Part shown: positions 5,618 through 28,112 of the stretch, in pieces | How positions within the stretch are numbered: the stretch's first letter is position 1 | Layout: every line of letters starts with the position of its first letter | Assembly: GCF_003073045.1 (NCBI RefSeq) | Contig: NC_037592.1 | Location: 6,860,047 to 6,924,046 of the forward strand | Reading direction: 5' to 3' | Length of the DNA stretch: 64,000 bases | Source of the DNA: Pomacea canaliculata | Lineage: Eukaryota; Mollusca; Gastropoda; Architaenioglossa; Ampullariidae | The notes under the pieces: generated by a model | The model's database searches: none | What the model was told of the DNA's origin: nothing | Seen by the model: the letters and a program-made list of their open reading frames with translations, nothing else | Position numbers and translations under genes: made by a program

Positions 5618-8600
5618 GAAGTCTATCTATATCTATCTATTCCTCTTTGTGCATCAGGTTGCACATAAGGCCTCAACCAGAGTCCGCCACCGATGTCGAT
5701 CGGCTGAAACCCGCTCTAGGTGACCCCATGTCCAGCCCTTTCCTTTCATCTCCCTTTCCACTGTTCTTCTCCAAGTTTCCTTTGGGCGGCCTCGTTTTCT
5801 TCGGCCGTCTGGAGTCCATCGTAGGGCGACTCTGGAAAGGTCTGCTGTCTGCTGGCGGAGCACATGTCCAATCCATCGCCAACGCCTTCGTTGAACCTGC
5901 GTGGTGATGGACTCGGTTTCACTTCTTCGGTGGAGTTCTTCGTTGGTGATGGTGTTTGGCCAAATGATGTTAAGTATGCGCCTGAGGCATCTGTTTTGGA
6001 AGACGTCAAGCTTGTTACTGATGGTTTTGGTCATCTTCCAAGATTCTGATCCGTAAAGGAGGGTGCTGATCACATTTGACTTGAAGATTCTCAGCTTGAT
6101 CTTCTGGCTGATGTTTTTTGCCTTCCATGTGCTCCTGAGTGAGGCAAAGGCCTGACTGGCTTTTGCCAGTCGGGCTCGAATCTCCACCTCCGCATCCCCA
6201 GTGTTTGACATTTTGGACCCAAGATAGGTGAAACTGTCAACTTCCTCAATCTCTTCTCCATTTAGTTTGATGCTGTCTTGGACTCTGGCGTTCACTCTCA
6301 TACTGTTAGTCTTTTTTGTGCTGACCTTCAAGCCAAGGTTTCCAGCTGTTTCTGAGAAGGCCTTTGTTTTTTCCTGCATGTCTTGGTGGCGGTGTGACAG
6401 CAGGGCAATGTCATCAGCAAAGTCCAAGTCTTCCAGTGCTGTTGTTGCTGTCATAGTCATGGTCCATCTGAGCCCTCTCCTCTCGCTGTCGGTGGAAGTC
6501 TTCATGATCCAGTCCATGGCCAGGATGAAGAGGAACGGCGACAGAATGCAGCCCTGCTTCACCCCGGTACTGACGTTGAAGGGGTCTGTGAGCTCCGTGT
6601 CACAGACAACCTGGGATTTGAAATCGCTGTACAGCATTGCAATGACCTGAACAAGTTTTGCAGGGACTCCGTAATGCCTCAGGATCTTCCATAAGGACTC
6701 GCGGTGGATGCTGTCAAAAGCCTTCTCCAGGTCGATGAAATTGATGTACAGCGGTGTGTTCCATTCGTTGCTCTGCTCCAGAATCTGTCGCAGAATGAAG
6801 ATGTGTTCGGAGCAGGATCGCCCAGGGCGAAATCCTGCTTGCTGTGGTCGGAGGTCTTTCTCAAGAGTTGCCGTCAGTCTTGACAAAACAATCTTGCTGA
6901 AGACCTTGCTGGTGAGGGAAAGAAGTGTTATGCCCTCCAATTATTGCAGTCTCCAAGATCTCCTTTCTTGGGTAACTTGAAGATGAGCCCTGTCTTCCAC
7001 GCAACAGGGACCTGCCCTGATTCCCAAATTTGCCTGAAGATTTCAGTCAGCTTGGGAGCTGTCACATTCACGTCTGCTTTCAACATCTCTGCTGTTATTC
7101 CATCTGCCCCTGGTGCTTTGCCGCTCTTCATTGTCTTGACTGCTGCTGTCACTTCTTCCAGGCTTGGTGGTCTGTGCAGATGTCAAGGTCTATAGCTGCT
7201 GGCTGGATGTCTGCAAGCTGAGGGGATCTGGTCTGTTCAGAACCGACTCAAAATGCTCCCTCCAGCGCTGTAGTTTTCCTGCCTCTCCCTCGACGACATT
7301 ACCGTTCACGTCTTTCACTGGCACATCACTGTTCTTAAACCCGTTGTTTAGCTGTTTGTTTATCTTGTACAGTGTCTTCAGGTCATTTTTACTTGCTGCA
7401 TTTTCTGCTTCATCTGCCAGTTTCTCTATGTGATATCTTTTGTCGGTTCTTGTCATCCTCTTTACCTCTTTGTTCAGTTTTGCATATCTTTGTCTGTGTT
7501 GTTCCTTCAGGCGTTCAGATCTGGTGCTGTTGATTCTTTGTTTGGCTGACTTTCTCTCTTCTATCTTCCTCCATGTCTCTTCTCTGATCCACTGTTCTTT
7601 CTTTTTCCGTTGGAAGCCCAGTATTTTCTCTCCTGATTCCTGTAAGACTCGATTGAAGTCGTCTAAGGTCATCTCTTGTTGGTCTCCTAGTGCCTGGAAC
7701 CTGTTCTTTACTTCCATAGCAAAGGCCCTTTCGGTGGCTGGATTTTTTAGTTTGCCGGAGTCCACTCTCTGCTGACGTGCCTGTTTTCCTCGTGATCGAC
7801 GCAGCTTCAGAGAAACATTAATTTTAGATAAACGTGAATGGCTATCACAAGAGTGTGGTCACTGGCAATGTCTGCTCCTCTGTAGGCTCTAACATCTTGA
7901 AGTGAGCTCCTCCATTTTCGGTTGATGATGACATGGTCTATCTGGTTCTTTGTGATCCCATCTGGTGATGTCCATGTTGCCTTGTGGATGTCTTTGTGTG
8001 GGAAGAGTGTGCCTCCAATCAGTAGGTTGTTTTCTTCACAAAAGTCTGCCAGTCTCTCTCCGTTGTCATTGATGGTTCCGATTCCATGTTTGCCCATGAC
8101 ATGCTCCCTGCAGGTGTTGTCACTTCCCACCTTGGCATTGAGATCGCCGATGATGAGCAACATGTCGTGGGCTGGAACGCTTTCTGAGGCTGCCTGGAGC
8201 TGATCGTAAAAAGCATCCTTGTCTTCTGCCTCAGAGTCATTTGTTGGTGCATAGCAGGCTAGCACTGTCAGCTTGGTGTACTTGGAATGGAATCTTGCTC
8301 TCAAAAGCCTGGGTCCATAAGGCTTCCATTCCAGCAGTGCCTTTTCCGTTTTCTTGTTGAGGAGTAGAGCTACTCCTTCAGAGTGCTGAGCGTCTGATCT
8401 TCCTGAGAACAAGATGGTATGTCCTGACGCTAGTCTCCTCTTTCCCGTGCGGGTCCATCTGACCTCACTGACTCCCAGGATGTCCAAGTTGTAGTTGTCA
8501 AACTCCTTGACTAATTGGAGCATCCTGCCAGTCTGGTACAAGGTCTGGACGTTCCAGCACCCCACCCTCAACTTCTGCCTCGGCTTCAGTAAATCCGCTG

Positions 8601-8900
8601 TCGGGGCGCCAGCTCCCTTTCGGGTTTGGCTGTCGTCCGTCATTAGTCCAGTCACCTGGTGTGCTTCATTACCTTCGCCATCTGTGACGAGTTCTCTGGT
8701 TTTAGTTTCTGTAACAGGATTTTTTTTACATGGTGGGGTTGTTAGCCCTACCACAACCTATTTTACCTCTAGGTGAGGTGTCCACCTTAGTCGCCTCTTA
8801 CGACATGCCTGGCTGGATGGCAGGGACCCTATTCTTGCAATGCTTGCTAGGCAAGCATACCCCGGGGTCCCACAGGGGAACGGGAAGTATTCTGGGGAAT
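5618..8900 (-). mobile_element. RTE-like LINE (endonuclease + reverse transcriptase), inactive
   Basis: Minus-strand non-LTR retrotransposon. The 5' UTR (about 8760-8900) is GC-rich. The endonuclease is at 7839-8754, with APE-type motifs LRVGCWNVQTL, GDLNAKVG and a terminal SDHTLVIA. The linker is at 7190-7800. The reverse transcriptase is at 5654-7152, with KSGKAPGADGI, KQGCILSPFLF and FADDIALL, and a C-terminal region with RRWRWIGHVLRQ and GRRKRGRPKETW. The 3' end is a short (ATAG)n-type tail at about 5618-5640, as in RTE elements. It is broken: a 17-bp insertion near 7821 shifts frame at the end of the endonuclease; one-base losses are visible near 7230, 7165 and 6930 (frame changes at LNRPDP, at CTD/PPSL and at NNWRG). 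The RT C-terminal half is one long open frame, so decay is moderate. RTE versus RTE-X assignment is tentative. Confidence 0.85.
7819..7838. repeat. 20-bp exact repeat, copy inside the LINE
   Basis: TAATTTTAGATAAACGTGAA, identical to 9298-9317. Here it interrupts the LINE coding sequence exactly between the end of the endonuclease and the linker; removing 17 bp would restore the frame. Confidence 0.9.
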
Positions 8901-12427: not shown

Positions 12428-14717
12428 CTAGCCCGCTCGATTTTGCAGAGATGCGAGAACGTTGCCCAGCCTGGCCATCAGAGCTGCTCGGGTCGCAGAA
12501 TTCATGTTTAAGGCAGCCGCTGGGTTTAGTCTAGCTGGCAAAGAACCTGGTACCTGCATTGGCAACGACGAACTTCCGGTTCCCCCGGAAGTTCCCGTGT
12601 TGCTGCTCGCCTTGTCTGATCCGTAAGGCAAGGCTGGGACGGCAGAAAAATGAGAATGGGATGCTGCTGCTGCTGATGATGACGACGACGACGATGACGA
12701 TGATGCGGGAGACGGTCTGCTTTGGGATAAAGCTGGTTGTTGCCCTGTCTTTGTTGAGGAAGCTTGCTGAGCTCCGACAGACAGTGCACTGAGCGGGACT
12801 GAAGGCTGGGGCTGGATCTGGGGCTGAGGCTGGAGCTGGGGCTGGGGCTGTGCCTGTAGTTGATTTAACCCAGCAGCAGGGATGCTGAAACGCCAGCAAA
12901 AATAACCACTGAATGCTACAACATGCATCAAAACAGAATGAAAACCTATTTGAACATGTCATGCGGTAACTTTCAGTAGGACAACTCAACAAAAAGTTTA
13001 AACTAAAGTTGATTTCGTGTCCCTAGCTAGAGACCACTTAAGTAATTGAAAAGTTTGTTAGTTGTTGACTGTTTTTAATATTTGTAAATACATGTATATG
13101 AATTGTATGCATTACAAATTTATGTATGGTAAGGATATAAGACAGCCACCTCTGCTGACTTTGGGGTTAAGACACAGAATGGACGCCTGTGCAAGCCAAA
13201 TTATTAAATGAGCAGTGTGGGTAATAGATTTGTCACCTGGCCAATACAGGCTTCATAAATTTCTAATTATTTCGATTATAAGTAATACAAGTGATCTATA
13301 TATATATATATGACACACCTTAAAAATATTCTTGAAGTCTAAACTTGGCTTTGGCATTAGTCTACATTCCATATGATAACTTAAGCAGCAATGATTCATA
13401 AACCCATATACATTCCCCCATTCTACTCTCTCCCCCTGTACCACAAACAAGCATACATTTCCCATTTCATCCTTGAAATACATGCAGTTCGCACTTTGGA
13501 CGAACCCGTGAAATGGGTTTTGGGGGGAGTTGGGTGTTTAATTAAATGTCCTGACTTACAAGCGCTGCCTGGGTTGGCATAAACAAATGGTTGGCTGGGT
13601 AGGATGGGTCACTGACGGTGTTTCTAGCTGTGTGAATGAAACCCACATCTTAAAGAGAGGCTTACCTCACAATACCCGTAGTGTTGTAGTCTGTGTGTTC
13701 AGTCTTGTCTCTCTCGGGTATAAACAAGAATGATATGGCTTTTTCTGGGATGGAGAGACTTTACCTCCATTCTACATTTAGAGCCCCAGGGACTTTTTTG
13801 CAGCCCTAATTATGGACTGGAGCGCAAGAAGAGAGGGATAGAAAATGCATGAAGAGGCTGCTTTCTGCATTAACACCTGGGCCTTAACTATTGAGGATCG
13901 GATGATTGCTTAAGATCTCGCATCCTGCCCTCATAATTTCTCGCTGGACGTGACACTTGTTTCCATGGCAAGACTAGCAGTTACTTGGAGTAAAACGGCC
14001 TAGAGCCAGAGATTTTTAAAAAAAATGCACTCCGATTGGCTCTTAACAGGAAAGAGGGAAACAAAAGATTAATTAAGCCACTTACCTGGCTGAGCAGGGG
14101 TTCCCACCGGTGGCCATGCACTTCTCCACGCATGCGTCCACGCTGGCGAAGGAGGTGGGCGGCACGCACTGGTACTCGACCTCCATGTACTTGAGCACGT
14201 CAGGACACGGGTCAGACAGGAAGGTCGCCGTGTCCACCAGGACCTCACACATGAACCTCCCTTCACACCGGTACCGCATGTACTGGGTGGCGTCCGTCTT
14301 GCACATCTTTTGCAGCATGAAGTTGTCGCCACACCTGTGACAGCGTTCAGCAAAGATTGAAAGTTTTGCAGGCAAGAGGTAGTTGGTTGTCAGTGGGGTG
14401 CTGGTAGATTTTCCTTGGATTTCTTTTATTTTCTTTTTTGCTTTTTATGGTGGGTGGGTGATCTATATGTATACATTCTATTGGATTTCAAAATACTTGC
14501 ATTTCATTATCTTTGCAAGTGTTAGCAAGTGTGGTGAGCTCTACTCACTTGAATACACTCCCCGGTTGGCGGCCGAACTTGGCAGAAAGGATGAGACTTG
14601 GCCCGTGTAACACTGGATGACCAGCATGTCGCCTTCGCACGCGTAGACCGAGTAGCCGAGGGCGAGAGCTGACCACTGCAGCGTCACTAGCGCCACCAGG
14701 CACGCCTTGCTCAGCAT
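12428..14717 (-). CDS. Secreted SUEL-type (rhamnose-binding) lectin with Q/P/S-rich tail
   Basis: Three exons: 14717-14549, 14334-14086 and 12884-12428. Exon 1 encodes a signal peptide (MLSKACLVALVTLQWSALALG) and the lectin start (YACEGDMLVIQCYTG). Exon 2 gives the rest of the domain (CGDNFMLQKMC, CEGRFMCEV, FLSDPCPDVLKYMEVEYQC) and an extra Cys-pair segment. Exon 3 gives a low-complexity tail of Q-P repeats and serine runs, ending in LARLNPAAALNMNSA-like sequence, about 150 residues. SUEL domains bind galactose or rhamnose; the product is probably extracellular, perhaps mucus or defence related (inference). Oddity: the signal-peptide frame and the lectin frame of exon 1 (SAKFGRQPGSVF) differ by one base near 14598, and exon 1 ends in phase 1 while exon 2 needs phase 2. 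One added base would fix both, so this is an assembly error or a real frameshift. Confidence 0.7.
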
Positions 14718-18288: not shown

Positions 18289-21200
18289 CTAAAATAAGAT
18301 CACGTACGCAGGATAGGCCTGAGCCGAATCGAATACAACGTACATGCTGGGGTTGGTTGTATTATCACAAGCGCTGTTGTACGGCCTCTGTTTGGGGTCG
18401 CCGGAGTCGATGGGCGGTTTTGTCATTGTGCTATTCCCTGCCACTGTCCGACCGCACAGCACCCGAGCCACAAAAAGAGTCTTTGCTGACTGCAATGGGT
18501 CAAGGTCTAACACGGAGGTGGAATAACAGAGTGTGGAAGCTTGTTCAAGACCTGAAGCCATGCAGGAACACTTAATGCTAGGGTGCGTGTGTACTTGATA
18601 GCGTAGAGATACTCTCCACTGGCCTTTTCTTCATTCCTGTCACTGAACTTCAGTGAGTAGCTAGCATGCTTTGCGAAGTAGCATCCTGAAACAAAAATTA
18701 TTCAACTCAAAATTCCTGAGACTGAAGCAATCTGCAGTTAATCATTAATACTTCAGTAAGTTGTGAAATTTTAACAAACTGAAAAAAAGTTATGACATTT
18801 ACAATATTCTTGCAACGATTGGAAGCAGATAGCCAGCAGCAGAAGCAGATACGCAGGCTAGTTGGACATTCGAGTGGTGCAGCATATCCCTATGATTCAG
18901 CTGCTGACACCAGACCCCACTTTGGCTTCGGGAAGGAAAGACAAAGAAGTGATGGGGGCTGCTTTCAAATAAAAAAATAAGCCTGTCTTGAAAAAAGAAC
19001 CTCACACCCAAATGGTTCATGGGATTTCAAATATCTGTGGTCTTTGGTGTAGAAAGATGCATTCTGGAACTGAATTAGGCGAAGGTTTTAAAAGTCTGCA
19101 ATCCAGCAACAATTTAACAAAAGCTGATTAAAAAATAGCAATTAATTCATGCCTATGTCTACATGTACTCATGCACACACTTGTGAAACATGTAAACATT
19201 TACAAAGAACAAATACGACTTGGTGTCTGTCATCACCGTGTACTAACCTTTGCCATACACTGTGCCATTGCGCCCACAAAGGCGCCAGTCAAACCCCTCG
19301 CTACATATGTCATGAGCAAAGGTGGCCTCAGTTCCATGAAAGAGTAACTTTTCGTTGAGCTGGCCCTTTCCAAAATCATCGACCATGTGCTGGCGAGCTC
19401 TGAATAAAACAAAACATTGGAATGAATGACAAATAATATCTGTCCGACACGAAGCAAGTTTCTTGTTAGCTGTTTGTTGAAAAGTTGCCCGCACATTTTA
19501 ATACACAGGACTCATATGCATAGATATAAGCCATTCACCCATGGGTAATGTTGCCCTAACTTGGTAGGACCAATGGATAAAGTTAACCCAACAGGCAAAC
19601 TTATTTTCAGATTTATATCGATGGTGAAATTAACTAACGGATGTGCAAAGCTAAAAAAACCCATAAAAAGTGATTTCCACCCCTTTTATATATCATGAGG
19701 TTTCTACTTTCCTCTTTTGCTGATGCTGTTGTTATTAATGCTAATGACAACAGCAGTAGTCATGGGAGGAGAGTGGGCGTGGGGTAGGGATGAACCTGTT
19801 GTTTTATGCCAAGTCAGTAACTATAACAATAAGGATATATCATAACACATCAACCAGCCTTGTCAATAGACGCCACAGTAGAGGCAGAATGAAGTAACAA
19901 AGAATGCAGTATTGTATGAAAAGGGAGCATAAGCAACAGGAATCCACTAAGAACTCGCCAACATCTTGGATACTTGATAAGAATCATTAAAAAAATAATA
20001 ATGAAAAAAGAAAGAGTACATCAAATGGTTCAGTAATGACTTGCTCACAGGGCATATCTTTCCCAGAGATGCACATTTTGTATGCGTGAAATTTGTGGAT
20101 TGTTGTAACCAAAGTTAGGATAAGTGACCTCTACCCTCCTAAGGATCCTCTTGAATTCTCTGCTCTCCCTAAGTACATTAACCAGCAAGTACTTCTGCAA
20201 CAGGAATAATTTATGCACACATATATTCACACTGATCGTAGATTGCGGACACTGACATAATGCATGTACTACAGCGTAAATACCCATATAAAAATACTTA
20301 TACATGTTGTCTATAATAGGAATATGTAATTTTCCTGAAAAAAAAAAAAGCCAGCAAATGACTGGTTTCTACAAGCATGTACTTCACACACCAGCTAAAT
20401 TGCAACCAAACTTTATCATCAGATTTTTGTAAAATCTGTTTTTAAAATAGTACATGTAGAGCCAAAACACTCAACAATCATCATAATGGATTACCATTCT
20501 GTGTAACACATACACTGGGTTCTGTGCATGCTTGCTAGCTTATCTACATATCTCTAGGACATTAACAAGTGAACAACATTGACAGATATCTCTTGTAAAC
20601 AGAACTCTCCACACAGATTGCCAAGATAATCCATGTCTAATTCTATGATCCACAGGTACCTTGTACTTGATGCCCTAGGTATTTTACAATTTTCAAAAGT
20701 TAGCTATGCTTATACATGCACATAAAAGATTTATCCTGTCTGAAGATTCACTAACCTGTTGAAAATTTGGTGGAAATGGCGCCCAGTATCGAGGAGCAGA
20801 CACTGGAGACCATTCCTGAGTGGTTTTTGACCCACAGGACACATGACTAAACTGATAAAGGTCTTTCTTGCAAATCTGGCAGTATTTCTGGGAAAAATAT
20901 AAAAGCATCATAACAAGAAAACGAAGATGATATTAATGGCTATGATACAGAAGGAGGAAGAGAATAAAGTGGAGAATAAAAGACAACAAGAATTTGGTGA
21001 CAATAATACTGATGATGAAAAAAGAATGTCATTATTAGATTTAACATCTTTTGGTGCTAAAGATTGGTAAAATAAAAAATTAGAAAAATATTGCCTCTAA
21101 ACAAAACATTACATCTCTTCAAAATTAGCAGTGTACACAGACTAGTGACCCTAACCATCCACGAAGTGTTAACTTTAAAAAAAAAGATATTAGTCTTCAC

Positions 21201-24200
21201 ATGCCCAGATAGATGTAAACAAAAAGCATGCCCAAAGCTTATCTGTTCAGCTATCTTTATGACCAGCTGATGGAATGTTGTAATGAATTTCCTCAGAACT
21301 TTGCATAGAAGGGTCGGCCTTTGTTTTGCAGTGAATTGTAAGGGAGGCAACAGCTACCAATATCTTTTCCTTGACAACTTTTGAACCCATCTGCCTAATT
21401 AATTCATCAATCAAAAAATGTTAGGAAGTGTCTACCAAAATTTTCGTTGATAATGGAATAAGGAAACGAAAGAAGCCCCTTGAGCTTCATCTGTTTGATA
21501 ACTTAATTGTCAATCAGCTTTTACTGAAACTCACTTGTGAGCTGTTGCTGTTGATTAAACGGAATCCTATTTCCTTAGGACTTAATACCATCATGTCCAT
21601 ATCGCTGATTAACTTGAATGTTTCCTTTTCTGATTTTTCTTTCAGTAATTCCATAACAATGTACGGCAAAACTTTCCTTGCTTCTCCTGCTTGAGAGAAC
21701 ACAAACATCAAGAACACAATTTTAAAAAGCCGATATGGATAAGAATACATATGTTGAAAAAATGGCACCATCTTTCCTAAACAAAAATCACAAACTGTTC
21801 TTAGTTTTGTTTATATTAAAATGTTGCAAACACTTGCATAACATTTTAAAAGCATGATTTACTTGATGAAAGCAGTATTCCAAATCTTGCCATTGTTTAT
21901 TTTATACAATGATGTCACACTACCATTCTCCTTCACATAATACACAATGCTACATGCATGTGAACATCTTAACACATTCATAAATCTATTTCTCTCAGGG
22001 ATCATAGAGACAAAAATCAGGATCTCAGTAACCATAACATTGAGATGTTACTTGTAAAGTAGCAATCATTTCTAAAAGTTACTCGTAACAATTGCATTTG
22101 AAGGTAGCAATCATACTGAGTTTATATCCATGGGCATCAACCATTCAATTTACCTATAGGTAAAATTGTTCCTAACTTGATTAGGGAACCAGCCAATAAA
22201 GTTAAACCCAAAATACAAATTATCTCCAAATTCATGAGTCACTGTAAAATAACATACTGGCAGAAATTCCCGAAGAGAGGCAAGATTGCTAAAAGATACT
22301 TAAAAAGAGGAAAAAAATACAAGAAAGTCCAATTCATTCACTATGATGGCCATCGTAAATACTAGATGGCAAATATTGTTTGCTTTCTTTAGGAAACATA
22401 ATGACCTACAGAAAAAGCCAAAGGAATGATAGATCTAATTCAACATTAATAAATAACTAATTTTAAACATGTCACACTTACGTAATGGAACAGTCTGTTT
22501 ACAATTAGGTGCCAGACACTTGATATAAGCCTGGAAATAAGAAGTGAACATAATTAGACCCACATATCCTTATCTCAAAGACTAGAAGAGAAAGGAATAG
22601 TTGAATTGTTTAGGGACATTGACCAAGGCAGAAAAGGATGACTCAGTCAGACATTGCTTTGGACAAGTAAGTAGAAGTTAAGTGTTATCATCATTCAGTT
22701 GCACCCTGTTTTGGAGTATCCAGGACTTTATGTCAGCTATGCATTCTTGTCTCCCCGTCAGTAATTCAAGTTCAGTAAGGAGAACTGGCTGATAAAGCTG
22801 TGTATCATCACTAGTGAGTCAAAACTTAAATAGTCCTGTAACATGCCTCTGTAGGTGATAATAAAGTTTCCTTTGATGACATTTCAACACATGTTTGGCA
22901 TAGTAAGTGACCATCTCTGCACTGAGCAAAGCTGTCCCGTCCAATCAATGAACTGCATTTGCCACACAGCTGCAGGCGCTGCTGAAACTCTGAAACTGAA
23001 GGGAAGTAGCAATGATTTCAAATAGTTCTTGTCACAAGTTACACTGGAACAAAAATCAAGAAAATCAATCATTGACTGAACACCCACTTTAAAACTAATG
23101 TTCACTGAATGACAGAAGGTTATCATAAAAAAAACTACCAGAATGAGGCAGAAATATGGGCAGGTGATGCACAAAACTAGCCCTTACTGATGCAACAAGC
23201 AGAGGGGAGACCAAAGTGCCTTGTTAGCTGATATAGTCTCTAATGCACCAAATAGTTTATTTTCAACTTTTCTGTGAAAGGTAAAATTCTACTGTTTATA
23301 AAATCTGATTATCAGTCTATTATGCGCCAAAGATGCAAGCCAAAGTATCTGCATTAATATTTTGTGCTGGCTCTTCCTTCCAAATGAAGGTGGTTGAGGA
23401 AGTGGCTTTTCCAACTGCATTTGTTTTTTATGTCGTCATCAGTTGCATAGCCTCCAGTTACACATTCTAAGCTCCCAATAACTCGCCAAATGACCATAGA
23501 GAATACATAACTGCGAGTGTACAGTACTGACCATCAATAACATCCTCTTTTTCTTCTTCTGCACAGCTTTGGATAGAGGCATCTTTGTCCATTTCATTGA
23601 GGTCTATATGATCATCAACTGACGTAGCAGCTACTTCAAATTCTGGTGCTGAAACAAAACATTTCTAGTATAGTTAAAAAAAGATAAATAAATCAGAAGC
23701 TTGTCAAGACTATCTTGCACTTCATAATAGTTCTTTCCTCCATCCACAAACATATCCTTTCAAAATGCATTATGATAACCACAGCCTTCAAAGGGTTACT
23801 CTTTCGCTAGAACAATGTAAAACATTCTCAATATTTCTAGCTTTAAAGCCAACTGTCATACCCACCATTAAATCTATTCTACACCTTAAACCACCTCTCA
23901 CCTCAATAAACATTGTAATACATATATATATATACCTGCAATGCTTTTGATTCTAGTGGAACTGGTTTCAGATGTTGCAGTATTACAGACTTGCTCCGTA
24001 TTCTCTTCAACGTTCTGTGCATAGTCTTCACCTTGAATGACACCTAATTTTTCTTTATGTTTATAGTCTTGGTTTGGTACATTTCTGTCTGCTTTATTAT
24101 CGTCCAAAGAAACATCCCTTGACTGTAATCAGAACAATAAAGCTTTACAAGAAGCGCCTCAAAGCCTGAAAAAGAAAGCTTTATTTTAAAACTTTCTCCA

Positions 24201-27200
24201 AAAAATGTTTATAATTAAAGTCTCCATCTCCAGTCTTTTCAGAAATTGATATTTTATAAAAACAGATAAAGGGGGGCAAAAACCAAGAAGAAAATGTAGA
24301 TAACATAAGGATGCATCAAACACTTTACCATTATATACTTTGAACTTGTTAAGAATTTTTAGCTGTCTAACCAGACCAAATGAAATGTATTCTCTGTTAC
24401 AGGCAAGTTTCTTAACTAGTGAGCAAGAGGACAAAAATATAATGTGAAATATGCTCTTTCATGATGTTCGCCATCTTACAACTTTAATGGATACAACTTA
24501 AATGGTCCGTTAACATGCCTCTGTTGTTGAATAAGTTTCACTTGATGACTTTTTAACACATGCTTTGCATAGGAGGTGTTTGTTTCTGTGCTGAGTCAGG
24601 CTGTCCAGTCCAGCAAATAAACTGCATTTGTCACATACCACCTGCTGAGGTTCTGAAACCAAAAGGAAAAAAGAACAATGATTTTAATTAATTCTTGCAA
24701 TACAATAAACAATTTCCCGTAAAATTAAAAAGATAAACTGACAAACTCTCTTGCTACAACCTATAGGTTAAAATTACCATGGTGAATAAAAAAGTTTCAA
24801 GATTCTTCTTTCTGTCACTCAAGGGGTATTGAGATATTAAAAATATATCCATTATATAACATTAATGACTAACACCAGTTCAGTTCTATACATCAAAGTC
24901 TGCATTTAACCCCCTTTCAAAAGCAAAAACAAAAAAAAGTAACACATACTTGCACTTTCTTTTTCTGCAATAGAACTGGCACTAGAAATGTCTTCAGTAT
25001 CACAAACTTCATCAGTGTCCCTGTCATCTTCTTGCACAAGGTCTTGATTATGAATGCCAAACAAAATTTTTATGTATACATCATCCTCCGTCTCTTCCAG
25101 GTCTAAATCATCATCGGTTGACTGCGATCAGAACATAAATGTATACAGGTCACATTTTAAGTCTCCAAAGAGATCTTTTAAAATGGTTCCTGCAGAGTCA
25201 TAACTTGTTTAAATGCTTATTATTATAAGAATCCGACCCTTTTAGAATGAATAAGGAGGCAGAAATAAAATGAATGCAACATCAACATAATACTTACAGT
25301 GTTTTAAAAAAATTATACTAATAATGTATTTATAGTGCGATGCATGGAAAATTATTATGCAAAATATACACACCTACAGAACAAAGGGAAATAAACCAAG
25401 AATGATGTGTAGCAGTGTGTGAATGGAAACAACAAAGAAATTCAGAGGTAGACAATTGAAATCAGGCATGGTATTAAAAAAGTGTGCAATACAATAATCA
25501 AAAAGTATGAGATACAGAACAGAATACTAATGAAACAGAATCATTTTAAAAACTTCAGGTAACCATACTTGAACCATAAATGTATTGTTGTAAACTGAGG
25601 GTTTAACTTGAGTTATTTTATTTAGAATATAAGCTACAAAAGTGTTCAACACACAACACATATAACATAGTACAGGAATACAGGTAATCACACATAACAA
25701 CAAACCATTTAAGATAATTTGTAATAATATAATAAGATATAATAAAGACCTCAGAGACAGAACCAGTCATTTAGTAAGTTGTACTAACTTCCTCAGACTG
25801 GATGGCCAAAGATTCCTCTCCCAATTGACAAGCATCATATAATGTTTTCCCTTGGAAGTTGCCTTCCTGGCAAAAACAATTGAGACATATGCTCAAACAT
25901 GGAAGCAATTTTAAGACTTCAATAGTTAACAGGGTTACGAAACTTTGATTTCCTGAAATATCTTCCTATCATACCAATGCAAACAATATGATGCAAAACC
26001 TACAGAACCTTAAATAATCAATGGCAGATTTCAACCAAGAACAATACTTTATTTGACAAAGATAAAGACTCTACAACATATTTTGACAAAATGTAACAAA
26101 TAAAACTTATTAATATTTTCATCTGTATACTCACGCCAAGTTAACTTCTTAAAATTTCTTAGATTGATGCATTTTACAGACATCTTGATTATACTAAAAG
26201 TAACAATACTTTTTGTCAATGCTATGGATGCAGTTTTGACAAAATTAAATACATATAATGATCATGATAAACTACATCATATCTATTTTCTCAGAGTATA
26301 GAACTTTCAGAAATTATAAATAGACAATAGCTCTCAAGATGGGGAAAAAAAACGTTTCAACAAGACTTTCTGTCCACAACCTACCTAATCAGGATATTTC
26401 AGCATTCCTTTCATACAATTTATTGAACTTAAGTCTGGCACCTTAAAAGAGGAAACATGCAAAAACTATTTAACTCTGGAAACAGAAAAGACACAACAGT
26501 CAAAAAAATGCTTCTTACAATGTAATCCGAATCCTTTATTCTGCTATCTGAATCTTCTTCTTGGTGAACTTTACTTTCTTTCTCATGGATCTTATCGACG
26601 GGCATCTCACTTAATGATGCCAAAGTGTCCATATCAAATGAACTAACTGAACAATACTGAACCTCAGATCTGCATGATTCCTCAGACTGTGAGTCATTTG
26701 GCAGATAATCCACAGCATTGTGAAAGACTTTCCTTCTTTTGGTTTCCTGACCCAGACTACTATTCTCAGTATTTTCTTCAGTCCAGGAGTCACAGTCCAT
26801 GGTGGCAACAGGCAGTAACTTTCGCTTTTGTGTACTTTCTGTGTCCTTATTCTGGACGGATATCCCATTGGTCCGATCATCATCTGTAGTCAGAAGGCAC
26901 TTAAAACCTGCAAACAATTAATTTCAATTTTATATGACATTTGTTGTTATTATTTTTGTTTTGTTCATATGTTTTCCGAGGGCAGAAAGTTAAAGGGTAT
27001 ATAAAATAGTAGAAGTTATCAATCTGACAAAACACATATATGAAAAAGAACAAAAACAGAAAACTAAATAACAGCGCACTTCAGAACAGAGTCTATGCAT
27101 ATATTTACTTAATATTATGTCCTATAAAAAATTCTAAAACCAGGATACATGTCGTGAGTTGTGATAGGTCTTGTACTGTTTCATCTACAAAAAGTGTCTT

Positions 27201-28112
27201 ATGTGCATCATTTGTTCTACGTCACTTGAAGCAAAAAAATACATCATTTACAAAAGAAAAGCAGTTGCTCTAACATGTCCAAGTGAGTGGGAAAACACAA
27301 CATATAAAAACAAAAACCAGTTATTTCCAAATACTTTGGTTATGGCTACTGGGATTGAATTTTGCCTGCAAGATTAGCTGGTGATTCCCATAGTCATAGG
27401 TAATTGCAATGTTCTACATTATTTGGCTATATAACGAACTTTACTAAGAAACCTGATATAAATCCATAATTTCCAACAGAATTTTTAGTGGATTGTGTCC
27501 AAGTTTGCTAAAAGTGATTTCTTCTTATAATCTCTGACCAAAAATTATGAAAAATATACAAAATTAAAGCATGAACTTTTCGCTTTTCACCCGCTATATT
27601 TTGCAAAACCTGATCCATATAATCACCGCGCAACAATGAATTCTTCAAAGGTACCATTTTCACTTTGTCAAAAATAGCTGCCGGTGGAAAGTAATCAAAT
27701 GGTTGTGATTTTGTCTTTGACATACATATCAACAAGAACAAAATGCAAAATATGACACTTAATTTGGAAACCCAATCATTAATTTTATGGGGGATTTTTG
27801 CATAGAAACTGAGCTATATAATGTAACAGATAATTCTTTTAAAATGATCTAATAGTGCACTCTTCAATTAAGATCCAAAAATAAAATAATATTTATGTTA
27901 GTGAAAATTAAGATTGTTGTCAAACTAATGAACAAACCTGAATCTGAAGCAAGGATTTCATTTACACAGTGATAAAAGAAAACTTCCTCTGTGACTGCAT
28001 CCTGGTTATGCTTAACACCAGACATAATCTGCTGGACTCTCTCTGCATCAACGTTTGGAAAGATGTTGCGCAGTTTTGTGTATAAGTTCATTTCTTGTTC
28101 CTCGGTTATCAT
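18289..28112 (-). CDS. CUE-like / RNF216-type RING1 / PARP catalytic domain fusion protein
   Basis: Exons proposed: 28112-27938, 26907-26519, 25866-25789, 25120-24950, about 24655-24530, about 24114-23936, about 23650-23533, about 22990-22840, about 22531-22481, 21686-21535, 20887-20756, 20194-20049, 19399-19248, 18685 to about 18570, and about 18502-18289. The start is a CUE/UBA-like helix set (LRNIFPNVDAERVQQIM). Next come acidic, Ser-rich segments with a basic KRRK patch, then a zinc finger spaced C-x2-C-x11-C-x3-H-x2-C-x2-C (CRDGHLLCQTC) followed by CLAPNC and ARKVLP. This is the same spacing as RING1 of RNF216 as I recall it; no IBR or RING2 follows. The C-terminus is a PARP domain: PRYWAPFPPNF, RIQNVHLWERY, LLFHGTEATF, ICSEGFDWRLCG, GTVYGKGCYFAKHASYS, NPSMYVVFD. 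The catalytic positions read H-Y-M, so mono-ADP-ribosylation is predicted. The splice around 22850 is unresolved. Confidence 0.75.
19527..19613. repeat. Dispersed repeat, copy A
   Basis: Shares the pattern CCATTCA..CCC/TATxGGTAA..TTG.CCTAACTTG..TAGG.ACCA..xATAAAGTTAA.CC with 22132-22215; both are in introns of the PARP gene. Family unknown. Confidence 0.5.
22132..22215. repeat. Dispersed repeat, copy B
   Basis: Diverged partner of 19527-19613, same orientation. Family unknown, perhaps an old SINE or MITE. Confidence 0.5.
22840..25120 (-). repeat. Tandem internal duplication of the acidic + RING module
   Basis: Two copies inside the PARP gene. Copy 1 is the exons at 25120-24950 and 24655-24530; copy 2 is about 24114-23936 and 22990-22840. 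The RING exons share DNA such as CATGTGTTxAAAxGTCATCAA and ACAGAGGCATGTTA. The acidic exons share a EVCDT / QVCNT element followed by a Ser-rich stretch. Copy 1 has lost the third Cys and the DGH motif (QHRNKHLLC), so only copy 2 keeps full RING1 spacing. Confidence 0.7.

What the first reader, a model, noticed from the sequence alone, without database searches (positions are those of the whole stretch)
18289..28112. RING1 finger of RNF216 type fused to a PARP catalytic domain
One minus-strand gene appears to join a CUE-like ubiquitin-binding start, acidic linkers, a zinc finger with the C-x2-C-x11-C-x3-H-x2-C-x2-C ... C-x4-C spacing of RNF216 RING1, and a complete PARP domain (H-Y-M catalytic positions, so mono-ADP-ribosylation expected). 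Known partnerships such as DTX3L with PARP9 use two proteins for ubiquitin ligase and ADP-ribosyltransferase work; here both could sit in one chain. I know of no standard family with this order. The lack of IBR and RING2 suggests E2 recruitment or ubiquitin binding rather than full RBR catalysis.
Basis: partly seen in the sequence, partly recalled or inferred. Interest (0 to 1): 0.8.

Follow-up and report, generated by a model that had tools for sequence, protein, structure and literature searches.

The report
Snail ubiquitin-ligase RING fused to PARP
An apple-snail gene joins the front part of a ubiquitin ligase (RNF216) to an enzyme that attaches ADP-ribose to proteins, in place of the ligase's own catalytic end, and related fusions occur in many molluscs and an annelid, suggesting one protein that links two major protein-tagging systems.

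Summary
A minus-strand gene (28112 to 18289, 15 exons by my reading; Pomacea canaliculata LOC112559334) encodes in one chain a CUE-like domain, an RNF216-type RING1 and a PARP12-type catalytic domain (H-Y-M). It is not unique: 43 of 179 retrieved proteins (two of them models of this gene) match an RNF216-type RING profile, all 43 with PARP. Family A (31; named sources are bivalves, gastropods, a chiton, an annelid) has RING1 only, usually after a SIM-like start. Family B (bivalves plus this gene) has CUE, RING1 and IBR, with PARP where RNF216 has RING2. RNF216 exons, including a RING2-like one, and a family A gene lie elsewhere in the genome. A and B share two RING introns that RNF216 lacks, pointing to one ancestral fusion. 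Best reading: a ubiquitin-guided mono-ADP-ribosyltransferase built on an RBR ligase that lost its thioester domain. Dual writing is possible but untested; RING1's E2-contact residue here is Lys. Ten literature searches listed no such fusion. New variant of the known ubiquitin-PARP fusion kind.

The parts
27938..28112 (-). exon 1: start codon and CUE-like three-helix domain (aa 1-57)
26519..26907 (-). exon 2: acidic linker
   Evidence: only part of it is in P0001
25789..25866 (-). exon 3: linker
24950..25121 (-). exon 4: acidic linker
24519..24652 (-). exon 5: duplicated first half of RING1; third Cys replaced by His, no C-x4-C of its own; GC donor
   Evidence: 73% DNA identity to exon 8 over 212 bp; dN 0.34, dS 0.24 over 40 codons
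23936..24122 (-). exon 6: acidic linker
23532..23648 (-). exon 7: acidic linker
22847..22995 (-). exon 8: RNF216-type RING1, first six zinc ligands (C428-C453); GC donor
22482..22530 (-). exon 9: RING1, last two zinc ligands (C472, C477)
21535..21686 (-). exon 10: RING1-IBR linker helix and degenerate first half of the IBR (zinc Cys lost)
20756..20887 (-). exon 11: second IBR zinc site C-x2-C-x8-H-x2-C (C537-C552) and lead-in to PARP
20049..20194 (-). exon 12: PARP catalytic domain, N-terminal part
   Evidence: in P0001, not in P0002
19248..19399 (-). exon 13: PARP, catalytic His648 (LFHGT)
18552..18685 (-). exon 14: PARP, Tyr680 (CYFA) and short insert at the site of the long insert of relatives
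18490..18551 (-). 62-bp intron, spliced in P0002, retained in P0001
18289..18489 (-). exon 15: PARP C-terminal part with Met771 at the third triad position, and stop

Best explanation
Shown by sequence: the gene is an RBR-type ubiquitin ligase front end (RNF216-like CUE and RING1, part of an IBR) joined to a PARP12/14-type mono-ADP-ribosyltransferase domain that stands where RNF216 has RING2, the domain that carries ubiquitin as a thioester. Inferred mechanism: the CUE domain and the RING1/linker-helix surface dock the enzyme on ubiquitin, ubiquitin chains or an E2-ubiquitin conjugate, and the PARP domain then mono-ADP-ribosylates what is held there (a ubiquitylated protein, ubiquitin itself or the E2). 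Full RBR catalysis is excluded by anatomy because RING2 is gone.
Confidence: 0.55

Rival explanations
1. Dual writer: RING1 still recruits E2-ubiquitin and directs ubiquitin transfer, so one chain both ADP-ribosylates and ubiquitylates, perhaps making an ADP-ribose-ubiquitin hybrid as Deltex ligases do with PARPs.
For: All eight RING1 zinc ligands are kept in the snail and are invariant in the 8 B and 7 A rows aligned. RNF216 RING1 binds E2 canonically, and its C517A change did not lower discharge, so the odd residue at this place need not matter (PMC9834252, passages). ADPr-Ub is made by Deltex with PARPs (PMC12687431, sections 4, 5, 9 read). The snail has Lys after the last zinc Cys, the place of the RING linchpin (role recalled).
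Against: RBR RING1 domains hold E2-Ub in the open form for transfer to RING2 (PMC9834252), which is absent here; Lys, Ala, Gly, Ser or Asn at the E2-contact place in the eight B rows aligned; no DTC domain in the Pfam scans.
Confidence: 0.2
2. Remnant: the RING/IBR part is a non-functional leftover or mere scaffold, and the protein is a plain PARP12-like (perhaps antiviral) mono-ADP-ribosyltransferase.
For: In the snail the IBR has lost one zinc site; the extra RING half-exon shows no constraint against exon 8 (dN 0.34, dS 0.24, 40 codons); the row has a long end branch (1.05); PARP12 and PARP14 are among its nearest PARP relatives.
Against: RING1 zinc ligands and linker-helix residues are invariant in the aligned B proteins including the snail, and 31 family A proteins, from molluscs to an annelid, keep the RING.
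Confidence: 0.2
3. Artefact: two neighbouring genes (RING, PARP) read as one.
For: P0180 (unnamed source, 535 aa, 78 members) ends just after RING-IBR; P0002 shows that automatic models here can over-join genes (a lectin domain appended).
Against: Exons 10 and 11, between RING and PARP, keep frame, are in both public models and align with the RING1-IBR-to-PARP stretch of relatives; in relatives the order is in one open frame on contigs barely longer than the frame (P0091: 865 aa on 2839 bases; P0096: 859 aa on 2748).
Confidence: 0.04

Closest known systems
RNF216/TRIAD3 (RBR E3 ligase; PDB 7m4m, 8eb0)
   Same: CUE then RING1 (then IBR in family B) in the same order; best sequence and fold match of the RING part; RNF216 is drawn with SIM and CUE (figure legend, PMC9834252; the legend covers HOIL-1 too, the assignment to RNF216 is my reading)
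   Different: No RING2; PARP domain there instead; snail IBR half lost; extra RING half-exon. The same genome has RNF216 exons with a RING2-like exon on C8
PARP12 and PARP14/15 type mono-ADP-ribosyltransferases
   Same: Catalytic domain, H-Y-hydrophobic triad
   Different: No CCCH zinc fingers, WWE or macrodomains called by Pfam in the snail or in nine proteins scanned, P0001 among them; an insert in the catalytic domain at one site, long in relatives and short here
DTX3L with PARP9, and Deltex with PARP10/14
   Same: Couples a ubiquitin-system RING with a PARP
   Different: Two chains there, one chain here; RING is RBR type, no DTC (PMC12687431)
PARPs with ubiquitin-system domains: Dictyostelium U-box PARP, fungal UBCc-PARP6/8, PARP10 UIMs
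   Same: Ubiquitin-related module and PARP in one chain (PMC4245714, 12 of 14 passages shown)
   Different: Other modules and lineages; the passages shown mention no RING1 or IBR fused to PARP

Membership tests
PARP (PF00644), clade of PARP12/14 | PARP catalytic fold above Pfam cut-off | tested here: met
   94.7 bits against cut-off 26.7, aa 589-786
PARP (PF00644), clade of PARP12/14 | H-Y-[hydrophobic] mono-ART triad | tested here: met
   H648, Y680, M771 aligned with PARP12
PARP12 proper | CCCH zinc fingers and WWE domain | tested here: not met
   Pfam lists only PARP at E up to 1
RBR E3 ligases / RNF216 | RING1 with RNF216-type spacing | tested here: met
RBR E3 ligases / RNF216 | IBR with two zinc sites | tested here: not met
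   second site only in the snail; pattern found in 12 of 12 non-Pomacea B proteins, 0 of 31 A
RBR E3 ligases / RNF216 | RING2 with catalytic Cys | tested here: not met
   PARP follows the IBR remnant directly; a RING2-like exon is in the separate RNF216 locus (by eye, Pfam gives only a weak IBR_1 match)
RNF216 | CUE domain upstream of the RBR | tested here: inconclusive
Deltex E3 ligases | RING followed by DTC domain | tested here: not met
   no DTC in Pfam scans
Active E3 ligase / active ART | enzymatic activity | not testable with these tools
   needs purified protein

The most novel reading that the evidence does not exclude
An ancient lophotrochozoan event swapped the thioester-bearing RING2 of an RNF216-type RBR ligase for a PARP domain, giving single-chain enzymes in which the RING1 platform presents E2-ubiquitin or ubiquitin chains to an ADP-ribosyltransferase. 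Family B would read ubiquitin through CUE, family A SUMO through tandem SIM-like motifs; the product would be ADP-ribosylated ubiquitin or a hybrid ADP-ribose-ubiquitin mark made by one protein.
Probability: 0.2. Interest if true: 0.88.

Novelty: new variant of a known kind. Interest (0 to 1): 0.62.

Why it matters
ADP-ribose-ubiquitin cross-talk is studied mainly through two-protein pairs (Deltex and PARPs). A natural single chain in which RING2 of an RBR ligase is replaced by a PARP domain gives a compact system for asking whether RING1-bound E2-ubiquitin can serve as substrate or guide for ADP-ribosylation. It also shows that the RBR front end can be kept, in bivalves with its IBR intact, after the ligase's catalytic domain was lost. 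Oysters, mussels and apple snails are accessible sources of the proteins.

Tried and rejected
Rejected: that the gene is unique (43 of 179 retrieved proteins, two of them models of this gene, match the RING profile and have PARP); that the snail simply lacks an IBR (exon 11 keeps one zinc site at the spacing of relatives); that it is RNF216 itself with a misread end (separate RNF216 exons with a RING2-like exon on C8); that exon 5 is a full second RING (no C-x4-C follows it, third Cys is His; it could splice to exon 9 in frame instead of exon 8, which I cannot test without RNA). Sisterhood of A and B in the PARP tree is unresolved; the shared introns favour one origin. Family B in other gastropods: none seen, but one search lists only the best 120 of 463 and the snail's own protein is not among those 120, and (a RING1-IBR query) found 8 proteins, not the snail's, so absence is not shown. 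Structure models are weak overall (mean pLDDT 46.8 and 47.6, 13 sequences each). Searches are second looks at Foldseek's matches, not full searches. In one search the family A RING profile also drew F-box/WD proteins (E 2.9e-4, no single stretch significant), which I take as chance.

Literature: ten searches. I saw only the listed rows (titles and starts of abstracts; 20 of 51 papers, 29: 10 of 48, 30: 10 of 37, 51: 10 of 87, 69: 12 of 14,665, 94: 12 of 29, 70: 2 of 3; 19: none found; 50 and 93: both of 2), and none of them describes an RNF216/RBR-PARP fusion. Subscription papers and preprints are not held. Seen further: outline, abstract and sections 4, 5, 9 of PMC12687431; passages of PMC4245714 (12 of 14 places), PMC9834252 (12 of 39 places), PMC9334734, PMC13023353.

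Full report
WHAT IS THERE. The window lies at G000 C3:6860047-6924046 of a 440-Mb genome. The gene product is identical, over the matched part, to P0001, LOC112559334 isoform X4 of Pomacea canaliculata, on a contig of the same length as C3. Exon ends chosen by eye at splice sites on the minus strand give 15 exons, 28112 to 18289, all in phase, 788 aa. P0001 holds 13 of these exons in full and exon 2 in part; it lacks exon 15 because it reads into the last, 62-bp intron. P0002, another public model, splices that intron but lacks exons 1, 3, 5, 9 and 12. Two introns have GC donors; these follow exon 5 and exon 8, which are copies of one another (73% DNA identity over 212 bp including flanking intron).

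RELATIVES. Two protein searches returned 179 proteins in their lists (one search lists 120 of 463 hits). A RING1-IBR profile finds a match in 43 of the 179, all 43 with a PARP domain; the other 136 gave none at E up to 1 (my spliced model, also in that file, is not counted). The 43 are 31 of family A, 10 of family B (P0090-P0099), and two models of the window gene (P0001, P0002). In all 31 A proteins the match ends at profile position 105 of 156 or earlier, and none fits the IBR zinc pattern; 12 of 12 non-Pomacea B proteins fit it (counting P0180 and P0181; P0180 has no PARP). Named A sources include Mytilus, Pinctada, Haliotis, Biomphalaria, the chiton Liolophura and the annelid Lamellibrachia; named B sources are Saccostrea, Argopecten, Pinctada, Potamilus, Sinanodonta and the protobranch Solemya. 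P0091, P0095, P0096, P0099 and P0180 have no named source; in the tree P0091 and P0096 fall beside Saccostrea (100/100), and P0095 and P0180 are 91% identical to P0091 over the RING-IBR part, so I take these four as oyster-like. One B record is named 'E3 ubiquitin-protein ligase RNF216-like' (P0092).

FAMILY A START. Within the first 80 residues, 20 of 31 A proteins hold two or more SIM-like motifs (hydrophobic core with acidic flanks, my own pattern), against 2.3% of shuffles of the same stretches, 1 of 15 B rows and 1 of 136 others. A figure legend for RNF216 and HOIL-1 lists a SIM and a CUE, which I read as RNF216's (PMC9834252). So, loosely, A may keep the SIM and B the CUE of the ancestor. 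No A row hits the CUE profile (0 of 31; 13 of 15 B rows do, P0002 and P0181 do not; the profile was built from nine B segments).

ORIGIN. The profile of RING1-IBR (eight B rows, the snail included) hits RNF216 at E 1.8e-26 and the next RBR, ARIH2, at 1.4e-5; the A profile hits RNF216 at 1e-6. The same genome holds, on C8, RNF216-like exons in order: a CUE-like exon, RING1, IBR, and a RING2-like exon that I recognise by eye beside the RNF216 sequence printed (Pfam gives only a weak IBR_1 match). It also has a family A gene on C3 at 4.951-4.963 Mb. Comparing, the window gene and the A gene share two RING introns in place and phase (phase 0, four codons before the C-x4-C pair; phase 1, in the codon before the E that precedes the L-P of the linker helix) and three PARP introns (before the first PARP strand, phase 0, judged in A from the acceptor side only; phase 2 and phase 1 around the catalytic His exon). 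In RNF216 (one C8 copy read) the RING intron lies elsewhere (phase 1, 17 nt before the Cys) and the second is absent. I read this as one fusion ancestral to A and B. Whether the three PARP introns are older than the fusion was not settled (one search did not show the needed exons of other PARP loci).

TREE. On 61 PARP domains (21 of 31 A, 10 of 11 PARP-bearing non-Pomacea B, 29 of 136 others, my choice, and the model), A is one clade (95/94) and B with the snail is one clade (99/98); how A, B and the PARP14-type group join is unresolved. The snail's end branch is long (1.05), so its place within B is unsure.

HOW IT MIGHT WORK. Shown: no RING2, so no RBR thioester step. Shown: RING1 zinc ligands and several linker-helix residues are invariant in the aligned B proteins including the snail. 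From the literature: in RNF216 RING1 binds E2, and the RING1-IBR helix with the IBR binds an allosteric ubiquitin (PMC9834252, passages). Inferred: ubiquitin or E2-ubiquitin is held by CUE and RING1/helix, and the PARP domain marks what is held. Against E2 recruitment: Lys at the E2-contact place in the snail (P0001 residue 382, which the fold alignment sets on RNF216 517) and small or polar residues there in the other seven B rows, though the C517A change in RNF216 did not affect discharge.

NOVELTY. Ubiquitin-system domains joined to PARPs are known (U-box in Dictyostelium, UBCc in PARP6/8, UIMs in PARP10; PMC4245714; PMC12687431). None of the rows that ten searches of an open-access library listed describes an RBR front end with PARP in place of RING2 (calls and limits under Tried and rejected). 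I file it as a new variant of a known kind, not a new member of RNF216 or PARP12, since defining features of each (RING2; CCCH/WWE) were tested and not met.

UNCERTAIN. No RNA evidence was available; P0001 and P0002 are database gene models. The complete PARP domain in the snail rests on splicing of a 62-bp intron whose donor (GTCTTG) is weak by eye. P0180, a product ending after RING-IBR (78 members), may be an isoform or incomplete.

Noticed in passing
G000 C8 about 25.315-25.336 Mb (L013-L015): RNF216-like RING1 and IBR exons occur twice, about 18 kb apart, with near-identical translations: a likely tandem duplication of RNF216 in the apple snail.
   Followed up: partly
G000 C3:4951124-4962963 minus (L020-L022): A family A gene (SIM-like start, RING1, PARP) lies 1.9 Mb from the window gene on the same chromosome.
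   Followed up: yes
G000 C2:4309929-4536919: A cluster of 18 PARP-domain matches, many in long open frames (up to 1105 aa), within about 230 kb: a local PARP expansion.
   Followed up: no
window 18490-18551: A 62-bp intron inside the PARP domain, retained in the public isoform X4, which truncates the enzyme: possible activity switch or weak splice site.
   Followed up: partly
window 24519-24652 and 22847-22995: Two copies of the RING exon, both with GC donors and phase-compatible with exon 9, so they could be used alternatively.
   Followed up: partly
P0180 (unnamed source, 535 aa, 78 members): A product that stops just after RING-IBR, before PARP: a possible PARP-less isoform.
   Followed up: no
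window 12431-12958 and P0002: Public model C0Q70_04788 appends a downstream gene (PF02140 lectin domain) to the RING-PARP gene, probably an over-joined prediction.
   Followed up: no
window 5657-8757 minus: Reverse-transcriptase-like and endonuclease-like open frames, by eye a LINE-type retroelement.
   Followed up: no
P0099 (unnamed source, 1145 aa): A family B protein with an added fibronectin type III domain (PF00041), by eye between CUE and RING1.
   Followed up: no
PMC13023353 (passages): In the snail Bellamya purificata a gene named rnf216 is reported as sex-associated and higher in testis; whether it is true RNF216 or a RING-PARP fusion is not told.
   Followed up: no
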